A DNA stretch of 64,000 nt from Conexibacter sp. DBS9H8 (GTDB taxonomy: Bacteria > Actinomycetota > Thermoleophilia > Solirubrobacterales > Solirubrobacteraceae). The stretch spans positions 1,984,001 to 2,048,000 of the forward strand of contig NZ_CP097128.1 of assembly GCF_023330685.1 (NCBI RefSeq), in the 5' to 3' direction. Positions within the stretch are counted from its first letter, which is position 1. Every line of letters starts with the position of its first letter. The notes beneath the pieces were generated by a model. That model worked only from the letters and a program-made list of their open reading frames with translations, was not told where the DNA came from and made no database searches. Shown one piece after another: positions 3,490 through 11,743 of the stretch. The translations under genes and the position numbers were made by a program.

Positions 3490-4019
3490 GCGCCCAGGCG
3501 CCGCCCGTGGCCTACCGGCGCTTGCGGGCGTGCTGGATGGGCTTGCCTCCGGGGCGGCCGCTCAGCCTTGAGGCGGTTGAGCGCCACATCATCGAGGCCT
3601 GCGGGCTCCCTGCGGGCGACCACGCCACCGCGTCGGCGTTTCGCTGCGAGCTTGAGGGTGTCGGTGCGGTGCGAGTGGTCCGTGACCCGAGCGGGGCGCG
3701 GCGCTACGTGCGCGGTGAGACCTTCCCGGACTTCGAGGGGGAGCCCCAGCCGGGCAGTCAGCGTTACAACGCGCTGCTCGCCGACCGGCAGGCCGAGGAG
3801 GCCGCGCGGCGGGAGCGGCTGGAGGCGCTGAACCGGGCCAACGCGGAGCGCTTGAACGCGCCCGTCCGTGAGCTTGAGGAGCGGGCGTTGGCCCGTCAGA
3901 TCCGCGCCGTCGTCGAGGAGCTGCTCGTCGAGCGCGGGCTTATCGCAGGACCGGCTTCTGCTGGCACGTCAACGGAGGGTCCGGCCAGTGGACCCCACTA
4001 CGGAGGAGAGGCAGCATGA
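3486..4019 (+). CDS. Hypothetical protein with coiled coil, upstream of the capsid gene
   Basis: A product of 177 residues whose GTG start overlaps the preceding stop and whose stop overlaps the capsid ATG by 4 nt. The first 80 residues look like a compact domain (helix, then strands around GAVRVVRDPSGARRYVRG), possibly a winged helix. From about 95 to 155 there is a long charged coiled coil (DRQAEEAARRERLEALNR and so on). Its position directly before the major capsid gene suits a scaffold or head-assembly factor, but this is from context only. Confidence 0.55.
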   Translation: MSAQAPPVAYRRLRACWMGLPPGRPLSLEAVERHIIEACGLPAGDHATASAFRCELEGVGAVRVVRDPSGARRYVRGETFPDFEGEPQPGSQRYNALLADRQAEEAARRERLEALNRANAERLNAPVRELEERALARQIRAVVEELLVERGLIAGPASAGTSTEGPASGPHYGGEAA

Positions 4020-5683
4020 CCACATTCCAGCCCCATACCTATCAGGTCGAGGCGGCCGAGCGGGTCCGCGCGGAGGCCGCAGCCTTCGATGAGGCCCGAG
4101 CTGAGCTTCAGCGCGAAGCGATCCGGACGGGCGCTGACCGTCGCCGGGAGATCGCCGAGCTTGAGGCCAGCGCCGCGGACCTGCGCCGCCGCGCCGACTC
4201 GCTCGAGGACACCTCGGACCGGCGGCTGCTGAGCGCCCGCGGGGCGGCTGAGCTTGAGAGCGTCGCCGATGACGCCGAGTTGGTCCGCCACAAGCTGGCC
4301 GAGGTCGGCCGCGCGAGCCTCGGCCGCGCCAGTCGGGCGGTGATCGCCGCCGGCGGCGCCCGCCTGGCAGACGAGGCCTTCGAGCGGTTCGTCCGGGACG
4401 CGAGCCGCGCGGCCCGTGTCGATCGTGTGGCCCGCGAGTTGGGCGAGATCGAGGACCGCCACCGCCAGACCGCCGCCCAGGTGGTCCACGAGCCAGGCCC
4501 CTACGGCGTCGAGAGCCCGCATAGCTGGCTGATGGACCTGGCCACGACCTCCGGGCCCGGCGGGGGCGACCCGGCCGCGCAGGAGCGCCTGCTGCGTCAC
4601 GGACGCGACGTGGCCGAGGAGGTCCGCAAGGGCTCGCCCTATGGCCGTGAGGCTGAGCGGATCGTGCGCGCCCGGTCGCGGGGGGCAACCGAGGAGGAGA
4701 CCCGCAGGAAGGCCGAGGCCGAGCTGCGAACGCTGACGACGGGCGGCGGTGGCTCGTTGGCCTCGCCGGGTGCCAGTTACGGCGGCGCGTTCGTGCCACC
4801 GAGCTTCCTGCTGGACCGCTGGGCGCGTTATCGGTCGCCGTTCGCCAGCTTCGTGTCACAGCTCGATGACAGCGTGCCGCTGCCCGAGTGGGGCGAGAGT
4901 GTCATCATCCCGCAGGTCACCGCCTCGACGGATGTGGCCCTCCAGGTCGAAGCGGGCCCGGTCGCTGAGACCGACCCGAGCACAACCTACTTGAGCTATC
5001 CGGTGGGTAACTTCAGCGGCCAGCTCACCGTGTCACAGCAGCTGCTCGACCGGATCGGGCCGACTGTCAGTGCCGATGACGTGCTGTGGCGACAGCTCAA
5101 CCGCCAGTTGGCAGCCGCGGTCGATGCCGCAGCGATCAATCAGGCACTCGCCGGCGCGCAGGTGGTGACGAACTCGGGCACGTTCGCGCTGACACTCTCA
5201 GACGGCGTGGGCGGCCTGCTGGGCGACATTCGCTCAGCCAAGCGCCTCTTGACGAACACGCCGGGGGTGCGGCTGCGCGGCACGCACCTGTTCGCTCCGG
5301 ACGACCTGATCGACTTCATCGCCGCATGGGCGGACGGTCAGGGCCGGCCGATCTTCTCGCCGTCCTTTGATGACAACCGGCTGCCGATCCGCTCTGATGG
5401 TGACGGGCGCGCGGAGGGTTACTCGGGGTACGTGCTGGGCGGGTTGGCGTTGTTTGGTGACTCCAACATGCCCGAGTCGAGCGGCAACGCACAGATCCTT
5501 GTGTGCCGCCCTGACACGATCTTGCAGCTTCAGTCACCGCCGACCCCATACGTGCTCCCGCAGACGGGTGCCGGTTCCCTCGAGGCGACCGTCGGGTTGC
5601 GGCAGTACTGCGCGACGGTGCCACGGTATCCGGCGGGTGTCAGTGTCATCAGCGGGTCGGCGTATGCGAGCTCGCAGTTCTGA
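4016..5683 (+). CDS. HK97-type phage major capsid protein with long N-terminal extension
   Basis: Predicted length 555 residues. From about residue 245 the sequence is typical of the HK97-fold capsid family: a FVPPSFLLDRW entry, an E-loop-like region, the WGESVIIPQVT strand, the YLSYPVGNFSGQLTVSQQLLDR stretch in two parts, and a C-terminal VGLRQYCATVPRYPAGVSV ending. The first 240 residues are highly charged helices and coiled coil, longer than the usual roughly 100-residue delta/scaffold domain and probably acting as built-in scaffold. No prohead protease gene is seen to remove it. The ATG overlaps the previous stop (ATGA). Confidence 0.8.
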   Translation: MTTFQPHTYQVEAAERVRAEAAAFDEARAELQREAIRTGADRRREIAELEASAADLRRRADSLEDTSDRRLLSARGAAELESVADDAELVRHKLAEVGRASLGRASRAVIAAGGARLADEAFERFVRDASRAARVDRVARELGEIEDRHRQTAAQVVHEPGPYGVESPHSWLMDLATTSGPGGGDPAAQERLLRHGRDVAEEVRKGSPYGREAERIVRARSRGATEEETRRKAEAELRTLTTGGGGSLASPGASYGGAFVPPSFLLDRWARYRSPFASFVSQLDDSVPLPEWGESVIIPQVTASTDVALQVEAGPVAETDPSTTYLSYPVGNFSGQLTVSQQLLDRIGPTVSADDVLWRQLNRQLAAAVDAAAINQALAGAQVVTNSGTFALTLSDGVGGLLGDIRSAKRLLTNTPGVRLRGTHLFAPDDLIDFIAAWADGQGRPIFSPSFDDNRLPIRSDGDGRAEGYSGYVLGGLALFGDSNMPESSGNAQILVCRPDTILQLQSPPTPYVLPQTGAGSLEATVGLRQYCATVPRYPAGVSVISGSAYASSQF

Positions 5684-5740: not shown

Positions 5741-7648
5741 ATGAGCAGCACTGTCACCCCGCAGTCCTTCGCCCAGAGCCTGCTCTCGCAGCTGAACCTG
5801 CCGACGACGACCCAGAACCTGAAGATAATCGTCGGGTGGGAGAAGGCGGAGGGAGGCGCGGGCCCGCAGTTCGGTGTGCCCAACAACGTCGCCGCCTACA
5901 ACCCGCTGAACAGCACCCAGCCGATGCCGGGGTCAGTCAGCACGCCCGGTCCCGGTGTGCAGGCCTATGTCAACTGGGCACAGGGCCTCCAGGCGACGAT
6001 TCAGACGCTCGGGAACGGCAACTACGCGGCGATCCTGTCGATGCTCCAGGGCGGTAACGCGCCCTCGAGCGTGGCCGCGCAGGTGATCGACTCCAGCGTG
6101 TGGGGGACCAAGGATCTGACGGCCGCTCTGATCGACGGCGCTGCGGTCACGCCGAACGATCCCGGTCAGATCATCACCGGCACCCTCGGCGGTGGCATCT
6201 TCGGTCTCGGCGGCACGGGCACGGCGGCGAACCAGACGAGCCCGTCCATCTGGGTGGTGGGGAACTCCCAGAACCCGGACATGGACTACTGGACGTGCCT
6301 GAACGAGAAGGCTCAGCAGGCTCAGTGGTATCTCATCTCCGACGGCGAGACCCTGTACGCCGCCGATGGCATCAAGCTGATGGGGCAGACCCCGACGGCG
6401 GTGATCGTGCTCTATGACCCGCACGTCATCTCAGCGAACCTGACCTATGACAACTGCCTGGCGCTGGACACGCCTGTCCCGACGCCGACGGGTTGGACCA
6501 CGATGGGGGAGATCAAGCTCGGCGATCAGGTCTACGGTTCCCACGGGGCACCGACGCGCGTTATCGGGGTCTCGGCTGTCCATCACGGCCATGCCTGCTA
6601 CCGGGTGAGCTTCAGCGACCAGACCAGTGTGATCGCCGACGACGGGCATCTCTGGGAGACGATCAGCGCCTCCGGGCGGGCCGTGGTCACCACCGAGCAG
6701 ATCCGTCGCTCGCTCTCAGACGTGCACCGCGTGGGGGCCGTCACGGTCGAGGCCGTCGAGCAGGTCGCCTCGGTCCCGGTTCGCTGCATCCAGGTGGACG
6801 CCCCCGACAGCCTCTATCTCGTCGGCGAGGGGATGGTCCCGACCCACAACACGGCCTTTCAGAGCACACACACGACGCTCAAGCGCGAGGGTGTCGTGCG
6901 GCGCGCCACGCTGGCGCGGGTGACGAGCCCGACCGAGTGCGAGATCGAGATCATCTGCCCGATCGACACCTTCCGCGCCGGGGACACGGTGCAGCTGCTC
7001 CAGTTCGGGCAGGCCGCCGATGGCGTCTGGCTCGTCGGCGAAGCGCGCCGATCGGCCTTTCAGATTTACACGACCCTCACGCTGGTGCAGGCGATGCAGC
7101 CGCTCAACGCGAACACCGGACTGAATCTCGGGCCCGGTTATGAGCCGGGGAACATCGCCGCCAAACCGGGCTCCAACACGGTCCTCGCCGCGATCATCGC
7201 CGAGGCCAACGCGATCAGCAACGCCAAGATCCCCTACGTGTGGGGAGGCGGTCACGCCAACGCCGGCACGCCGAGCGGGTCACCGCTCCAAGGCTTTGAC
7301 TGCTCAGGCGCGGTCGGCGCGGTGCTGTACGCCGCAGGAATCTGGCCGCCACCGAACTACAAGGGGACCAGTGTGCCGATTGCCAACCAGATCGTCACCG
7401 ACCTGCTCAACGCGGGCGGCATCCTCGCGCCCGGACCGGGGACCGGGAAGTATCAGGTCACCATCTATGACCGGCCCACCCACATCTACCTCAACATCGA
7501 CGGCGAGTTCTGGCAGTTCGGCGGCCCCGAGGGAGTTCCCGGTGGATGGTGGCCTTCAGGGACGGCGCTGCCAGACTTCCGGGTGACGCACATCCTGCCG
7601 TCGGTCCTCGGCCAGGTCGCCACCCCCGTCACAGGAGTCGTCGGCTGA
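5741..7648 (+). CDS. Tail hub/wall-hydrolase protein interrupted by a mini-intein
   Basis: The 635-residue precursor has four visible parts. Residues 1-130 look like a lysozyme-type glycosidase (KIIVGWEKAEGG, NPLNST and a helical tail). Residues about 170-238 and 371-440 together resemble a phage baseplate-hub segment. Residues 239-370 are an intein. Residues about 460-620 form an NlpC/P60 (C40-like) peptidase with the nucleophile in FDCSG (Cys521) and a His in THIYL (His581). After splicing the mature protein would have about 503 residues and act as a tail-associated enzyme that opens the cell wall during DNA entry. The gap from the capsid gene is 57 nt, with only a weak GGTGGTGAG before the ATG. 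The peptidase and intein are clear; the lysozyme and hub calls are less sure. Confidence 0.75.
   Translation: MSSTVTPQSFAQSLLSQLNLPTTTQNLKIIVGWEKAEGGAGPQFGVPNNVAAYNPLNSTQPMPGSVSTPGPGVQAYVNWAQGLQATIQTLGNGNYAAILSMLQGGNAPSSVAAQVIDSSVWGTKDLTAALIDGAAVTPNDPGQIITGTLGGGIFGLGGTGTAANQTSPSIWVVGNSQNPDMDYWTCLNEKAQQAQWYLISDGETLYAADGIKLMGQTPTAVIVLYDPHVISANLTYDNCLALDTPVPTPTGWTTMGEIKLGDQVYGSHGAPTRVIGVSAVHHGHACYRVSFSDQTSVIADDGHLWETISASGRAVVTTEQIRRSLSDVHRVGAVTVEAVEQVASVPVRCIQVDAPDSLYLVGEGMVPTHNTAFQSTHTTLKREGVVRRATLARVTSPTECEIEIICPIDTFRAGDTVQLLQFGQAADGVWLVGEARRSAFQIYTTLTLVQAMQPLNANTGLNLGPGYEPGNIAAKPGSNTVLAAIIAEANAISNAKIPYVWGGGHANAGTPSGSPLQGFDCSGAVGAVLYAAGIWPPPNYKGTSVPIANQIVTDLLNAGGILAPGPGTGKYQVTIYDRPTHIYLNIDGEFWQFGGPEGVPGGWWPSGTALPDFRVTHILPSVLGQVATPVTGVVG
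6455..6850 (+). other. Mini-intein (Hint domain), 132 residues, in frame
   Basis: The insertion runs from Cys239 (CLALDTPVPTPTGW, block A) to Asn370 of the precursor. A block B-like segment has its histidine at intein residue 65 (DDGHLWE). The C-terminal blocks read VRCIQVDAPDSLYLVGEG and then MVPTHN, ending in the required His-Asn. The +1 extein residue is Thr371. All residues expected for splicing are present. Only about 30 residues separate the two halves of the Hint fold, so there is no homing endonuclease. The ending closely resembles inteins of actinobacterial phage terminases (family knowledge). Confidence 0.88.
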
Positions 7649-10079: not shown

Positions 10080-10124
10080 ATGCACGATCAGGAACCTAGC
10101 GGACCCCTCGGCGGTGATCGGTGA
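10080..10124 (+). CDS. 14-residue leader peptide of the integrase
   Basis: The reading frame ATG...TGA encodes MHDQEPSGPLGGDR. A strong AGGAGG at 10063-10068 precedes it by 11 nt. Its stop overlaps the GTG start of the integrase (GTGA at 10121-10124), and the integrase has no ribosome-binding site of its own. Integrase translation is therefore probably coupled to this leader. The peptide itself need not have a function. Confidence 0.5.
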   Translation: MHDQEPSGPLGGDR

Positions 10125-11368
10125 ACCGGCCGACCGGGCATATCGAGGTCCGCCAGCTCAAGGGCGGCGACACGTTCTACGCGAAGCTCAAGCTCGCCGA
10201 CGGGTCCCAGGCGCGCCGGTCGCTCGGCAAAGTGTGGGCCAAGCGCTCAGCGCCACCGGCGGGTTACCTGACCCACCGCCAGGCCGAGGCCAAGCTCGCC
10301 GAGATCCTCGCCGGCAAGGACCCCAGCGTCGAGGTCAACCGCGACCCGAACGCCGCGACCTTCCGTCAGGCCTGCGACGAGTTCATGCGCCACCGCCGCG
10401 ACGACAGGCAGCGCAAGACCTCGACTCTGCGGGACTACGAGTCGGTGATCGAGTACCGGCTCGTCCCGCGCTTCGGTGCCGACACGCAGCTGCGGAAGAT
10501 CACCACCGAGCAGATCGACGCCTTCCGGGATGACCTGCTCGCCGGCGTCAGCCACCGCACCGCGCAGAAGACGCTCGCCGTACTCGCGGGCATCCTCGAG
10601 CGGGCCAAGCGCCGGCGGTGGATCGACTCCAATCCCTGCGACATCGCCGAGAAGGTCACCTTGCGGCGCTCAGACGAGATCAACGTCCTGACCGCTGACG
10701 AGGTGCTGCTCGTGTCCGCCGCGGCTCCCCAGCTCTACTGTGCGGCCATCCAGACGGCCGCGTTCACCGGGCTACGGATGGGGGAGCTGCTGGCGCTGCG
10801 CTGGCGCCACGTCAACATCACCGACCGCATCCTGCACGTCCAGCGCAGCCACGTGCGAGGCGAGGAGACCTCCCCGAAGTCCCACAAGCGCCGGGCGGTC
10901 CCACTCAGCGATCAGGCCATCCGTGCTCTCGACGCCGCCAGTCGGCGGGAGTTCTTCACCGGACCCGACGATTACGTCTTCACCGAGACCGGAGGGCCCC
11001 TCTCGGAGGTCAAGCTGCGCGACACCTTCTACGCCGCGCTCGGCGCCACGCTGCCGGACAAGCGACCCGGCAAGGGCCATCGCCGGCGAGCCGACGGCGC
11101 GGGGACGATGACCTTCCACGACCTGCGCCACACCTTCGGGACCCTGGCGGCAGGGAACGGCGTCGAGTTGGTCCGCTTGCAGCGGTGGATGGGCCACGCG
11201 GACATTCAGACGACGATGCGTTACGCCCACTACACGCCCGCTCACGACGATGCGGCGCGGCTCACGGCGGCGTTCTCCAGGGGCTCAGGATTTGGCACCC
11301 AATTTGGCACCGAACTGAGCGAATCTCAGCGCATTTCGGGTGCCACGGCAGGCCTGAGAAGCCCGTAA
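10121..11368 (+). CDS. Tyrosine site-specific integrase
   Basis: A 415-residue tyrosine recombinase. An N-terminal arm-binding domain (GDTFYAKLKLADG) is followed by a SAM-like core-binding domain at about 75-165 and the catalytic domain from about 180. Catalytic residues are visible: Arg in TGLRMGELLALRW, the HDLRHTF box, the GHADIQTTMRYAHY segment with the second His and the nucleophilic Tyr. It would join attP to a tRNA-Leu target; a 3'-half tRNA-Leu(CAA) follows 28 bp after the stop. The GTG start is chosen because it overlaps the leader ORF; length is normal for phage and ICE integrases. Confidence 0.95.
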   Translation: MNRPTGHIEVRQLKGGDTFYAKLKLADGSQARRSLGKVWAKRSAPPAGYLTHRQAEAKLAEILAGKDPSVEVNRDPNAATFRQACDEFMRHRRDDRQRKTSTLRDYESVIEYRLVPRFGADTQLRKITTEQIDAFRDDLLAGVSHRTAQKTLAVLAGILERAKRRRWIDSNPCDIAEKVTLRRSDEINVLTADEVLLVSAAAPQLYCAAIQTAAFTGLRMGELLALRWRHVNITDRILHVQRSHVRGEETSPKSHKRRAVPLSDQAIRALDAASRREFFTGPDDYVFTETGGPLSEVKLRDTFYAALGATLPDKRPGKGHRRRADGAGTMTFHDLRHTFGTLAAGNGVELVRLQRWMGHADIQTTMRYAHYTPAHDDAARLTAAFSRGSGFGTQFGTELSESQRISGATAGLRSP

Positions 11369-11396: not shown

Positions 11397-11448
11397 CTCA
11401 AAATCCGCTGCCCGCAAGGGCGTGCGAGTTCGAATCTCGCCCGCGGTA
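11397..11448 (+). other. 3' half of tRNA-Leu(CAA), right attachment site
   Basis: The sequence reads as an anticodon loop CTCAAAA, the 3' anticodon stem, a long leucine-type variable arm, a perfect T arm (GCGAG/CTCGC around TTCGAAT, 11424-11440) and the 3' acceptor strand ending in A at 11448, followed by five T. The 5' half of a tRNA is missing upstream: the bases before the loop do not pair with TCCGC. This is the duplicated target end left when an element inserts in a tRNA gene. An intact tRNA-Leu(CAA) is expected at the left end outside the window. Confidence 0.8.
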
Positions 11449-11743
11449 TTTTTGGTCCTCAATCCGAGCTGGGATGGGGGCGAGGTCCGATCGGGTCGGG
11501 TCGGGACACCAGGGCGGGGCGGCGGCGGGATCCCGATCGGCACACGCCGTGCCCGCATACGGGGGACGGAGTTCGGGCGGGGAGGTCACAGATTCGTCGA
11601 TCTGACGAAAAATCGCACTGGCTCCCGCTTTCGAGGCCCGCCGCCAGCCGGCATCGTCCCGGCTGCCCGGCCTCGCGCAGCGTCGGTTGCGGTCTCGGCG
11701 CCGGCACCGGCTGCCTCGCGCCGCCCCCGGTACCGTTCTTCTT

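What the first reader, a model, noticed from the sequence alone, without database searches (positions are those of the whole stretch)
6455..6850. Endonuclease-free mini-intein in a phage tail hub/hydrolase protein
The sequence shows Cys1, a block B histidine, a terminal His-Asn and Thr+1, all within 132 residues. This is near the smallest size for a working intein. Most phage inteins sit in terminases or polymerases at active-site motifs; this one splits a structural tail protein between LTYDN and TAFQS. Its C-terminal blocks strongly resemble those of actinophage terminase inteins, which suggests transfer from such a gene.
Basis: partly seen in the sequence, partly recalled or inferred. Interest (0 to 1): 0.75.

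Follow-up and report, generated by a model that had tools for sequence, protein, structure and literature searches.

The report
Cys1-bearing class 3 mini-intein in tail hub
A small self-removing protein segment (an intein) sits in a phage tail-hub gene of a small integrated element in an actinobacterium; it belongs to a known alternative-chemistry group of inteins but carries an extra cysteine that the group is usually said to lack.

Summary
The intein is real and the coordinates are exact: 6455-6850 encodes 132 residues in frame inside a 635-residue ORF. Its closest solved relatives are the class 3 DnaB1 mini-inteins of mycobacteria (E 1e-32 to 1e-34), and its AlphaFold model (pLDDT 97) matches them best (TM about 0.9).

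The insertion is shown by intein-free hub genes: four viral contigs and a prophage-like region of Paraconexibacter run FDN|T.F or VDN|TSF straight through. A sixth relative has a 360-residue intein with LAGLIDADG-like motifs at the same site, also with Cys1 plus WCT. So empty, endonuclease-bearing and mini states of one site exist. The fold of an intein-free relative supports "tail hub plus NlpC/P60 hydrolase", but the window's hub lacks the first half of that protein and lies in a 13.3-kb tRNA-Leu-integrated element; no terminase, portal or other tail gene was recognised among the ORFs scanned.

Most likely mechanism: class 3 splicing begun by Cys111, with Cys1 dispensable or a second route. 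Splicing is inferred, not shown. A terminase donor is neither singled out nor excluded.

The parts
5741..7648 (+). Precursor gene: truncated tail-hub protein with intein and C-terminal NlpC/P60 hydrolase domain (635 aa)
   Evidence: NlpC/P60 residues 498-577 (Pfam 0.00087, 19.7 bits, below its cut-off of 23; RipA-type model 4.1e-7, also below its cut-off)
5741..6454 (+). N-extein, 238 aa: a domain shared with other proteins of the host's class (about 1-156) and the front of the second hub domain (about 174-238)
6455..6850 (+). 132-aa mini-intein of the class 3 lineage
6452..6457 (+). N-terminal splice junction Asn(-1)|Cys1
   Evidence: sequence
6596..6598 (+). Cys48, equivalent of the Cys48 that forms a disulfide with the catalytic Cys118 in M. 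smegmatis DnaB1 (PMC6195587)
   Evidence: alignment column nearly invariant; paper passages
6638..6655 (+). Block B: Asp62 (B:7), His65 (B:10), Trp67 (B:12, W of WCT)
   Evidence: same numbers as Asp62, His65 and Trp67 of Msm DnaB1
6785..6787 (+). Cys111 (F:4, C of WCT), predicted initiating nucleophile
6842..6853 (+). Thr130 (G:5, T of WCT), His131, Asn132 | Thr+1
6851..7648 (+). C-extein, 265 aa: rest of the second hub domain and NlpC/P60 domain
4016..5683 (+). Major capsid protein gene of the same element
   Evidence: phrog_2263 1.5e-18
10121..11368 (+). Tyrosine integrase of the same element
   Evidence: PF00589 4.3e-24
11397..11449 (+). Likely attR: 53-bp exact copy of the 3' end of a tRNA-Leu(caa) gene; the other copy begins at window coordinate -1882 (G000:C1:1982118)

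Best explanation
The 132 residues are a mini-intein of the class 3 (WCT) lineage that homed into a conserved loop of phage tail-hub genes as a full-length intein with an endonuclease and later lost the endonuclease. After translation it folds as a Hint domain; Cys111, activated by His65 and Thr130, attacks the Asn238-Cys1 bond to give the class 3 branched thioester; the N-extein passes to Thr+1; Asn132 cyclises with help from His131; the exteins rejoin as LTYDN-TAFQS. Cys1 is probably not needed but could give a second, class 1 way to start. Shown here: kinship, predicted fold, intact residues, precise insertion, same-site empty and long-intein relatives. Inferred: that it splices, which Cys starts the reaction, and the order of events in evolution.
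For: Nearest solved sequences are class 3 DnaB1 inteins; model pLDDT 97.2, pTM 0.89, best PDB folds 6rix, 6bs8, 6riy at TM 0.86-0.92, gp41-1 next at 0.77-0.80. W67, C111 and the end Asn invariant, T130 and H131 nearly so, in the 16 rows of A1, window included; W67, C111 and T130 invariant in the 15 rows of A4, window included. His65 and Trp67 have the same numbers as in the Msm DnaB1, Mle DnaB and Bvi IcmO inteins, which were shown to need Cys F:4 (passages of PMC5222942). Block B is DxxH, lacking the Thr that primes residue 1 in class 1 inteins (passages of PMC6195587). Intein-free relatives read through the site: L320 (same contig as L174), L322, L323, L324 and G356; L321/L125 has a 360-aa intein there.
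Against: Published definitions require or select for no nucleophile at position 1 (PMC7891396, passages and section; PMC5050341, passages); this intein has Cys1, so class membership is not clean. The hub lacks its N-terminal half (no match at E up to 1) and no terminase, portal or other tail gene was recognised among the element ORFs scanned (and one left-end ORF), so selection for splicing may be relaxed. FastTree does not put the two hub inteins next to each other. The endonuclease of L321 rests on motifs that I read and a Pfam match under its cut-off (Hom_end 0.0028). No expression or protein data.
Confidence: 0.72

Rival explanations
1. A class 1 intein in mechanism: Cys1 makes the first thioester by N-S shift and the WCT residues are inherited but no longer start the reaction.
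For: Cys1 present. The only other intein found at this site also has Cys1, and a scan anchored on the site plus xLALDTP with any first residue found only that one viral contig, so Cys1 may be tied to the site. Ten viral contigs have Cys1 with this N-terminal motif, and all ten keep W, C and T in the sequences printed.
Against: DxxH instead of TxxH in block B; full WCT kept; nearest kin are class 3. Engineering WCT into class 1 gp41-1 with C1A gave mostly cleavage, not splicing (passages of PMC7664689), so the two active sites are not freely exchangeable.
Confidence: 0.18
2. A dead or dying intein: the hub gene is a truncated leftover in a defective element, and the intein no longer splices or its splicing no longer matters.
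For: Hub N-terminal half missing; no other tail, portal or terminase gene recognised among the ORFs scanned. A class 3 intein pseudogene in a prophage remnant has been described (PMC3196547, passages).
Against: Reading frame open over 635 codons with all catalytic residues present, GC3 of the intein like that of the exteins (0.886 against 0.895 and 0.861), full-length integrase ORF and exact 53-bp repeats, related capsid genes in two other genomes of the same genus.
Confidence: 0.2
3. Not an intein but another Hint domain (bacterial intein-like or hedgehog type) used for processing of the hub.
For: Hint fold family shared; the fold search also lists BIL and hedgehog chains, far lower.
Against: Has a +1 nucleophile and His-Asn end; best matches are true class 3 inteins by sequence and fold; a precise empty site exists.
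Confidence: 0.02

Closest known systems
M. smegmatis / M. chimaera / M. leprae DnaB1 class 3 mini-inteins (PDB 6bs8, 6rix, 6riy for the first two)
   Same: Predicted fold, W-C-T triplet, DxxH block B, Cys48 (Msm), no endonuclease, size (139-145 aa against 132), 47-50% identity in the fold alignment
   Different: Position 1 is Ala and +1 is Ser in Msm (passages), site is in a replicative helicase; the window intein has Cys1, Asn at -1, Thr+1, in a tail hub
360-aa intein in the hub gene of viral contig IMGVR_UViG_3300049456_000051 (L125/L321)
   Same: Same insertion site FDN|C...THN|T, Cys1 plus WCT, same hub family; 60% identity over 108 splicing columns
   Different: Keeps a LAGLIDADG-like region (LGYWLGDG, LQGLMDSDG, my reading; Pfam Hom_end 0.0028, under its cut-off); its hub has the front half that the window lacks
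Class 3 terminase large-subunit inteins of phages
   Same: Class 3 lineage, similar block F/G sequences (VPVRCI..., IPTHN)
   Different: Placed in the terminase ATPase domain in mycobacteriophages (PMC5050341, passages); position 1 mostly not Cys in my rows
Ser1-plus-WCT inteins (Catera Gp206, Nocardioides TOPRIM, Tfu2914; Tori and Perler 2011)
   Same: Mixture of class 1 and class 3 marks
   Different: Ser1, not Cys1; this item is recalled, the paper is not held

Membership tests
Intein | In-frame insertion absent from homologous host proteins, at an exact site | tested here: met
   Five intein-free hubs (L320, L322, L323, L324, G356) and two occupied ones
Intein | Hint fold | tested here: met
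   AlphaFold model and Foldseek
Intein | C-terminal His-Asn and Cys/Ser/Thr at +1 | tested here: met
   HN|T
Intein | Excises and ligates the exteins | not testable with these tools
   needs expression or mass spectrometry
Class 3 intein | Trp B:12, Cys F:4, Thr G:5 | tested here: met
   W67, C111, T130
Class 3 intein | Falls among class 3 inteins by kinship | tested here: met
   Best sequence and fold matches are class 3; the 15 other rows of A1 have W and C and lack Cys1. My trees held no class 1 outgroup
Class 3 intein | No nucleophile at position 1 (as worded in PMC5050341; no Cys there used as a filter in PMC7891396) | tested here: not met
   Cys1, codon TGC
Class 3 intein | Block F branched intermediate formed by Cys F:4 | not testable with these tools
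   needs biochemistry
Class 1 intein | Cys/Ser/Thr at position 1 | tested here: met
Class 1 intein | TxxH in block B | tested here: not met
   D62-D-G-H65
Mini-intein | No endonuclease domain | tested here: met
   132 aa; short linker only
Phage tail hub | Hub fold of baseplate/tail-tip proteins | tested here: inconclusive
   Intein-free relative L320 matches hubs by fold (pLDDT 65), but the window protein has only the later part and was not itself modelled

The most novel reading that the evidence does not exclude
A two-nucleophile intein: a class 3 lineage that regained Cys1, so that splicing can start from Cys1 or from Cys111, a living bridge between the two mechanisms; Cys1 has been regained several times among phage class 3 inteins (hub; after WK in two terminase-like genes; a GpA-like terminase in six contigs; after KKNAK in another).
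Probability: 0.2. Interest if true: 0.7.

Novelty: new variant of a known kind. Interest (0 to 1): 0.42.

Why it matters
Class 3 inteins are usually described as having lost the first-residue nucleophile, and a survey of 1701 of them selected for no Cys there (PMC7891396, section read). Natural inteins with both Cys1 and the full WCT set allow a direct mutational test of whether the two chemistries can coexist and interchange, a point argued over in PMC7664689 (passages). The hub site also offers empty, endonuclease-bearing and endonuclease-free alleles in one gene family outside the usual terminase and polymerase motifs, so the homing cycle can be followed at a structural-protein loop.

Tried and rejected
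Pfam, NCBIfam and a genome search with PF14890 were weak or empty for the intein; phmmer against PDB and PHROGs settled it. A terminase donor was considered: no clear nearest relative, one terminase-like row among the top five, so left open. Trees of the splicing domain were largely unresolved: FastTree on 204 rows x 108 columns, IQ-TREE quick on 151 rows with 9 of 148 inner branches starred. FastTree did not put the two hub inteins together (their common ancestor spans 27 rows); held together in IQ-TREE the tree was 40.6 log units better than the free search (p-AU 0.749), which does not prove a clade. Cys1 needed 7 changes for 9 Cys1 rows on that poor tree, so recurrent gain is only suggested. 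The intein-free hub L320 finds only its C-terminal hydrolase part in 21 annotated phage records, and a 256-aa hub stretch of G356 finds none. A scan with the G356 hub found no relative in viral contigs. More distant hubs G433, G384 and G338 (G338 is cut by the contig end) show no such intein but were not counted, because the site region does not align. The G401 match gave no hub in my ORF BLAST and was dropped. In one search the L326 row came from a wrong reading frame and was dropped; the same gene was read from L063. L325 does not align at the site and was not counted. The paper on Ser1-plus-WCT inteins is not held. Papers on phage inteins: passages of PMC6892783, PMC3322345 and PMC3556154 name polymerase, terminase, PhoH and ribonucleotide reductase hosts, no tail protein.

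Full report
What is there. The ORF 5741-7648 on the + strand encodes 635 residues; 6455-6850 is an in-frame 132-residue stretch, CLALDTPVPTPTGWTTMG...ADDGHLWET...VPVRCIQVD...GMVPTHN, followed by TAFQS. phmmer against solved structures finds mycobacterial DnaB1 inteins with E 1.5e-34, 9.2e-34 and 1e-32, over residues 2 to 131 or 132, and only two further distinct chains, both gp41-1 forms, down to E 1. PHROGs gives 5.3e-17 to a terminase family, which I take to hold intein-bearing members. Pfam and NCBIfam are weak. A search of its own genome finds no second copy (next match E 0.217).

Class. In alignment A1 (16 rows, window included) Trp67, Cys111, His65 and Asn132 are invariant and Thr130 and His131 nearly so; only the window row starts with Cys. 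In A4 (15 short inteins, window included) Trp67, Cys111 and Thr130 are invariant. Passages of PMC5222942 give His65, Trp67 and Cys118/124/122 for three class 3 mini-inteins whose splicing was blocked by Cys F:4 to Ala; the window's His65 and Trp67 have the same numbers. Passages of PMC6195587 describe the DxxH block B and the redox pair Cys48-Cys118 of Msm DnaB1; the window has Asp62, His65, Cys48 and Cys111. So it is of class 3 lineage with an added Cys1.

How odd is Cys1? Among 106 distinct rows from loci fetched up to then, chiefly by homology to the hub protein or to A1, position 1 was Ala 72, Pro 15, Gly 7, Cys 3, Asp 3, Ser 2, and one each of Leu, His, Gln, Glu; the three Cys rows are the window, the same-site intein L125, and one distant intein (L052). 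A DNA pattern for C-L-A-L-D-T-P-x-P-T found 10 viral contigs; all 10 read in frame into inteins that keep W, C and T and end THN|S or THN|T: one hub (L175, the contig of L125), two terminase-like after WK (L176, L181), six GpA-like terminase after QSGK (L177, L178, L180, L182, L183, L184), one after KKNAK (L179) (protein names here are my reading of the flanks). In genome contigs the Cys1 pattern found none (the window's own genome may be left out there). So Cys1 plus WCT is a minority state found at several sites. PMC7891396 chose its 1701 class 3 inteins as having no N-terminal Cys (section read), so such cases would not be in it. I found no description of Cys1-plus-WCT inteins in the passages read after searches; Ser1-plus-WCT inteins are recalled from Tori and Perler 2011, not held here.

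The insertion. G356, whose contig matches Paraconexibacter antarcticus NZ_CP098502.1, has an intein-free 702-aa homologue in a prophage-like region. Queried with the window's two flanks joined, it aligns through the junction: VDNTSF against YDN|TAF (31% over 249 columns, E 1e-25); unjoined, the two flanks match either side. A viral contig, L125/L321, encodes a 1042-aa hub with a 360-aa intein at the same place, TFDN|CLALDTPIPTPDGW...MIPTHN|TQFQYR. Its close relative L174/L320 (78% and 83% identical on the two sides) lacks exactly those 360 residues. Three more intein-free viral hubs, L322, L323 and L324, read FDN|T[SA]F. Of the eight hub rows, two are occupied, four empty, one (L325) not alignable at the site, and one (L326) came from a wrong frame and was replaced by the G356 ORF. 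Three more distant hubs (G433, G384, G338) lack the intein but do not align at the site and are not counted. A last scan anchored on the site with any first residue gave only the L125 contig. Among the 40 rows shown of 362 annotated phage records that match the L321 N-part, the listed features are helicases, terminases, exonucleases, HNH or hypothetical proteins, none named as a tail protein. Three paper searches for inteins in tail, minor tail or baseplate proteins (listings, and passages of three papers) showed me no tail-hub intein; a portal protein is among the hosts in PMC5050341.

Structure. The 132 residues model with pLDDT 97.2 and pTM 0.89; the best PDB folds are 6rix, 6bs8 and 6riy, then gp41-1. 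The intein-free hub L320 models moderately (pLDDT 65, pTM 0.47) but Foldseek lists contractile and phage hub proteins (diffocin, eCIS, P1, Mu gp44, MuSo2 43-kDa protein) and NlpC/P60 peptidases, with low TM by query length (about 0.25 for hubs) and about 0.5 by target length for Mu gp44 and the MuSo2 protein. The insertion point, Asn474|Thr475 of L320, opens a low-confidence stretch 474-498 between strands 469-471 and 503-509, which suggests a loop rather than an active site.

The host gene and its element. The window hub corresponds to the rear part of the viral hubs: nothing like L320 residues 1-245 occurs in the window or in the 16-kb stretch L335 on its left at E up to 1. Its first about 130 residues resemble a domain at the end of other proteins in the host's class (40-53% identity). 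A 53-bp exact repeat of the end of a tRNA-Leu(caa) gene begins at window coordinate -1882 and at 11397, so the element is about 13.3 kb. It holds an AAA ATPase gene (414-1811), a capsid gene (4016-5683), the hub and a tyrosine integrase (10121-11368); no terminase, portal or tape measure was recognised among the proteins scanned in those calls and one left-end ORF, but not every small ORF of the element was scanned. Related capsid genes occur in 3 other genomes of 146 in the family, two of them in the same genus.

Mechanism and verdict. I hold that it splices by the class 3 path, started by Cys111, with Cys1 either idle or a second start. The evidence for lineage, fold and insertion is direct; splicing and the choice of nucleophile are inference. 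The terminase-donor idea is open: over 108 splicing columns the closest rows are 62, 61, 61, 60 and 60% identical and include a terminase-like row, the same-site hub intein and others, and the trees are unresolved. The window intein is best seen as the endonuclease-free stage of a hub-site intein of which a long stage and empty sites survive in phages.

Noticed in passing
window -1882 to 11449 (G000:C1:1982118-1995449): A 13.3-kb element integrated at tRNA-Leu(caa) with 53-bp repeats, carrying AAA ATPase, capsid, half-hub/hydrolase and integrase but no packaging gene recognised among the ORFs scanned: looks like a capsid-encoding satellite or reduced prophage. Relatives with 41-42% identical capsids occur twice in G139 of the same genus (L332, L333).
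   Followed up: partly
L027, L029, L031, L032, L065, L087, L091: Class 3 inteins with Ala1 in a gene that reads GK|A...|SSLGRLGL in several genomes of the host's class; dCTP deaminase by PHROG for L065 only. L027 and L065 are the same place.
   Followed up: no
L071 608-2836: Intein in a PhoH-like gene of a same-genus genome, position 1 Ala.
   Followed up: no
L061 9719-13840: One viral ORF that matches the intein N-terminal blocks at two places (residues 95-187 and 578-670), so it may carry two class 3-like inteins.
   Followed up: no
L177, L178, L180, L182, L183, L184: Six viral contigs with a 404-aa Cys1-plus-WCT intein in a GpA-like terminase (my reading) at QSGK|...|SSLL; a larger group for testing the two-nucleophile idea.
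   Followed up: partly
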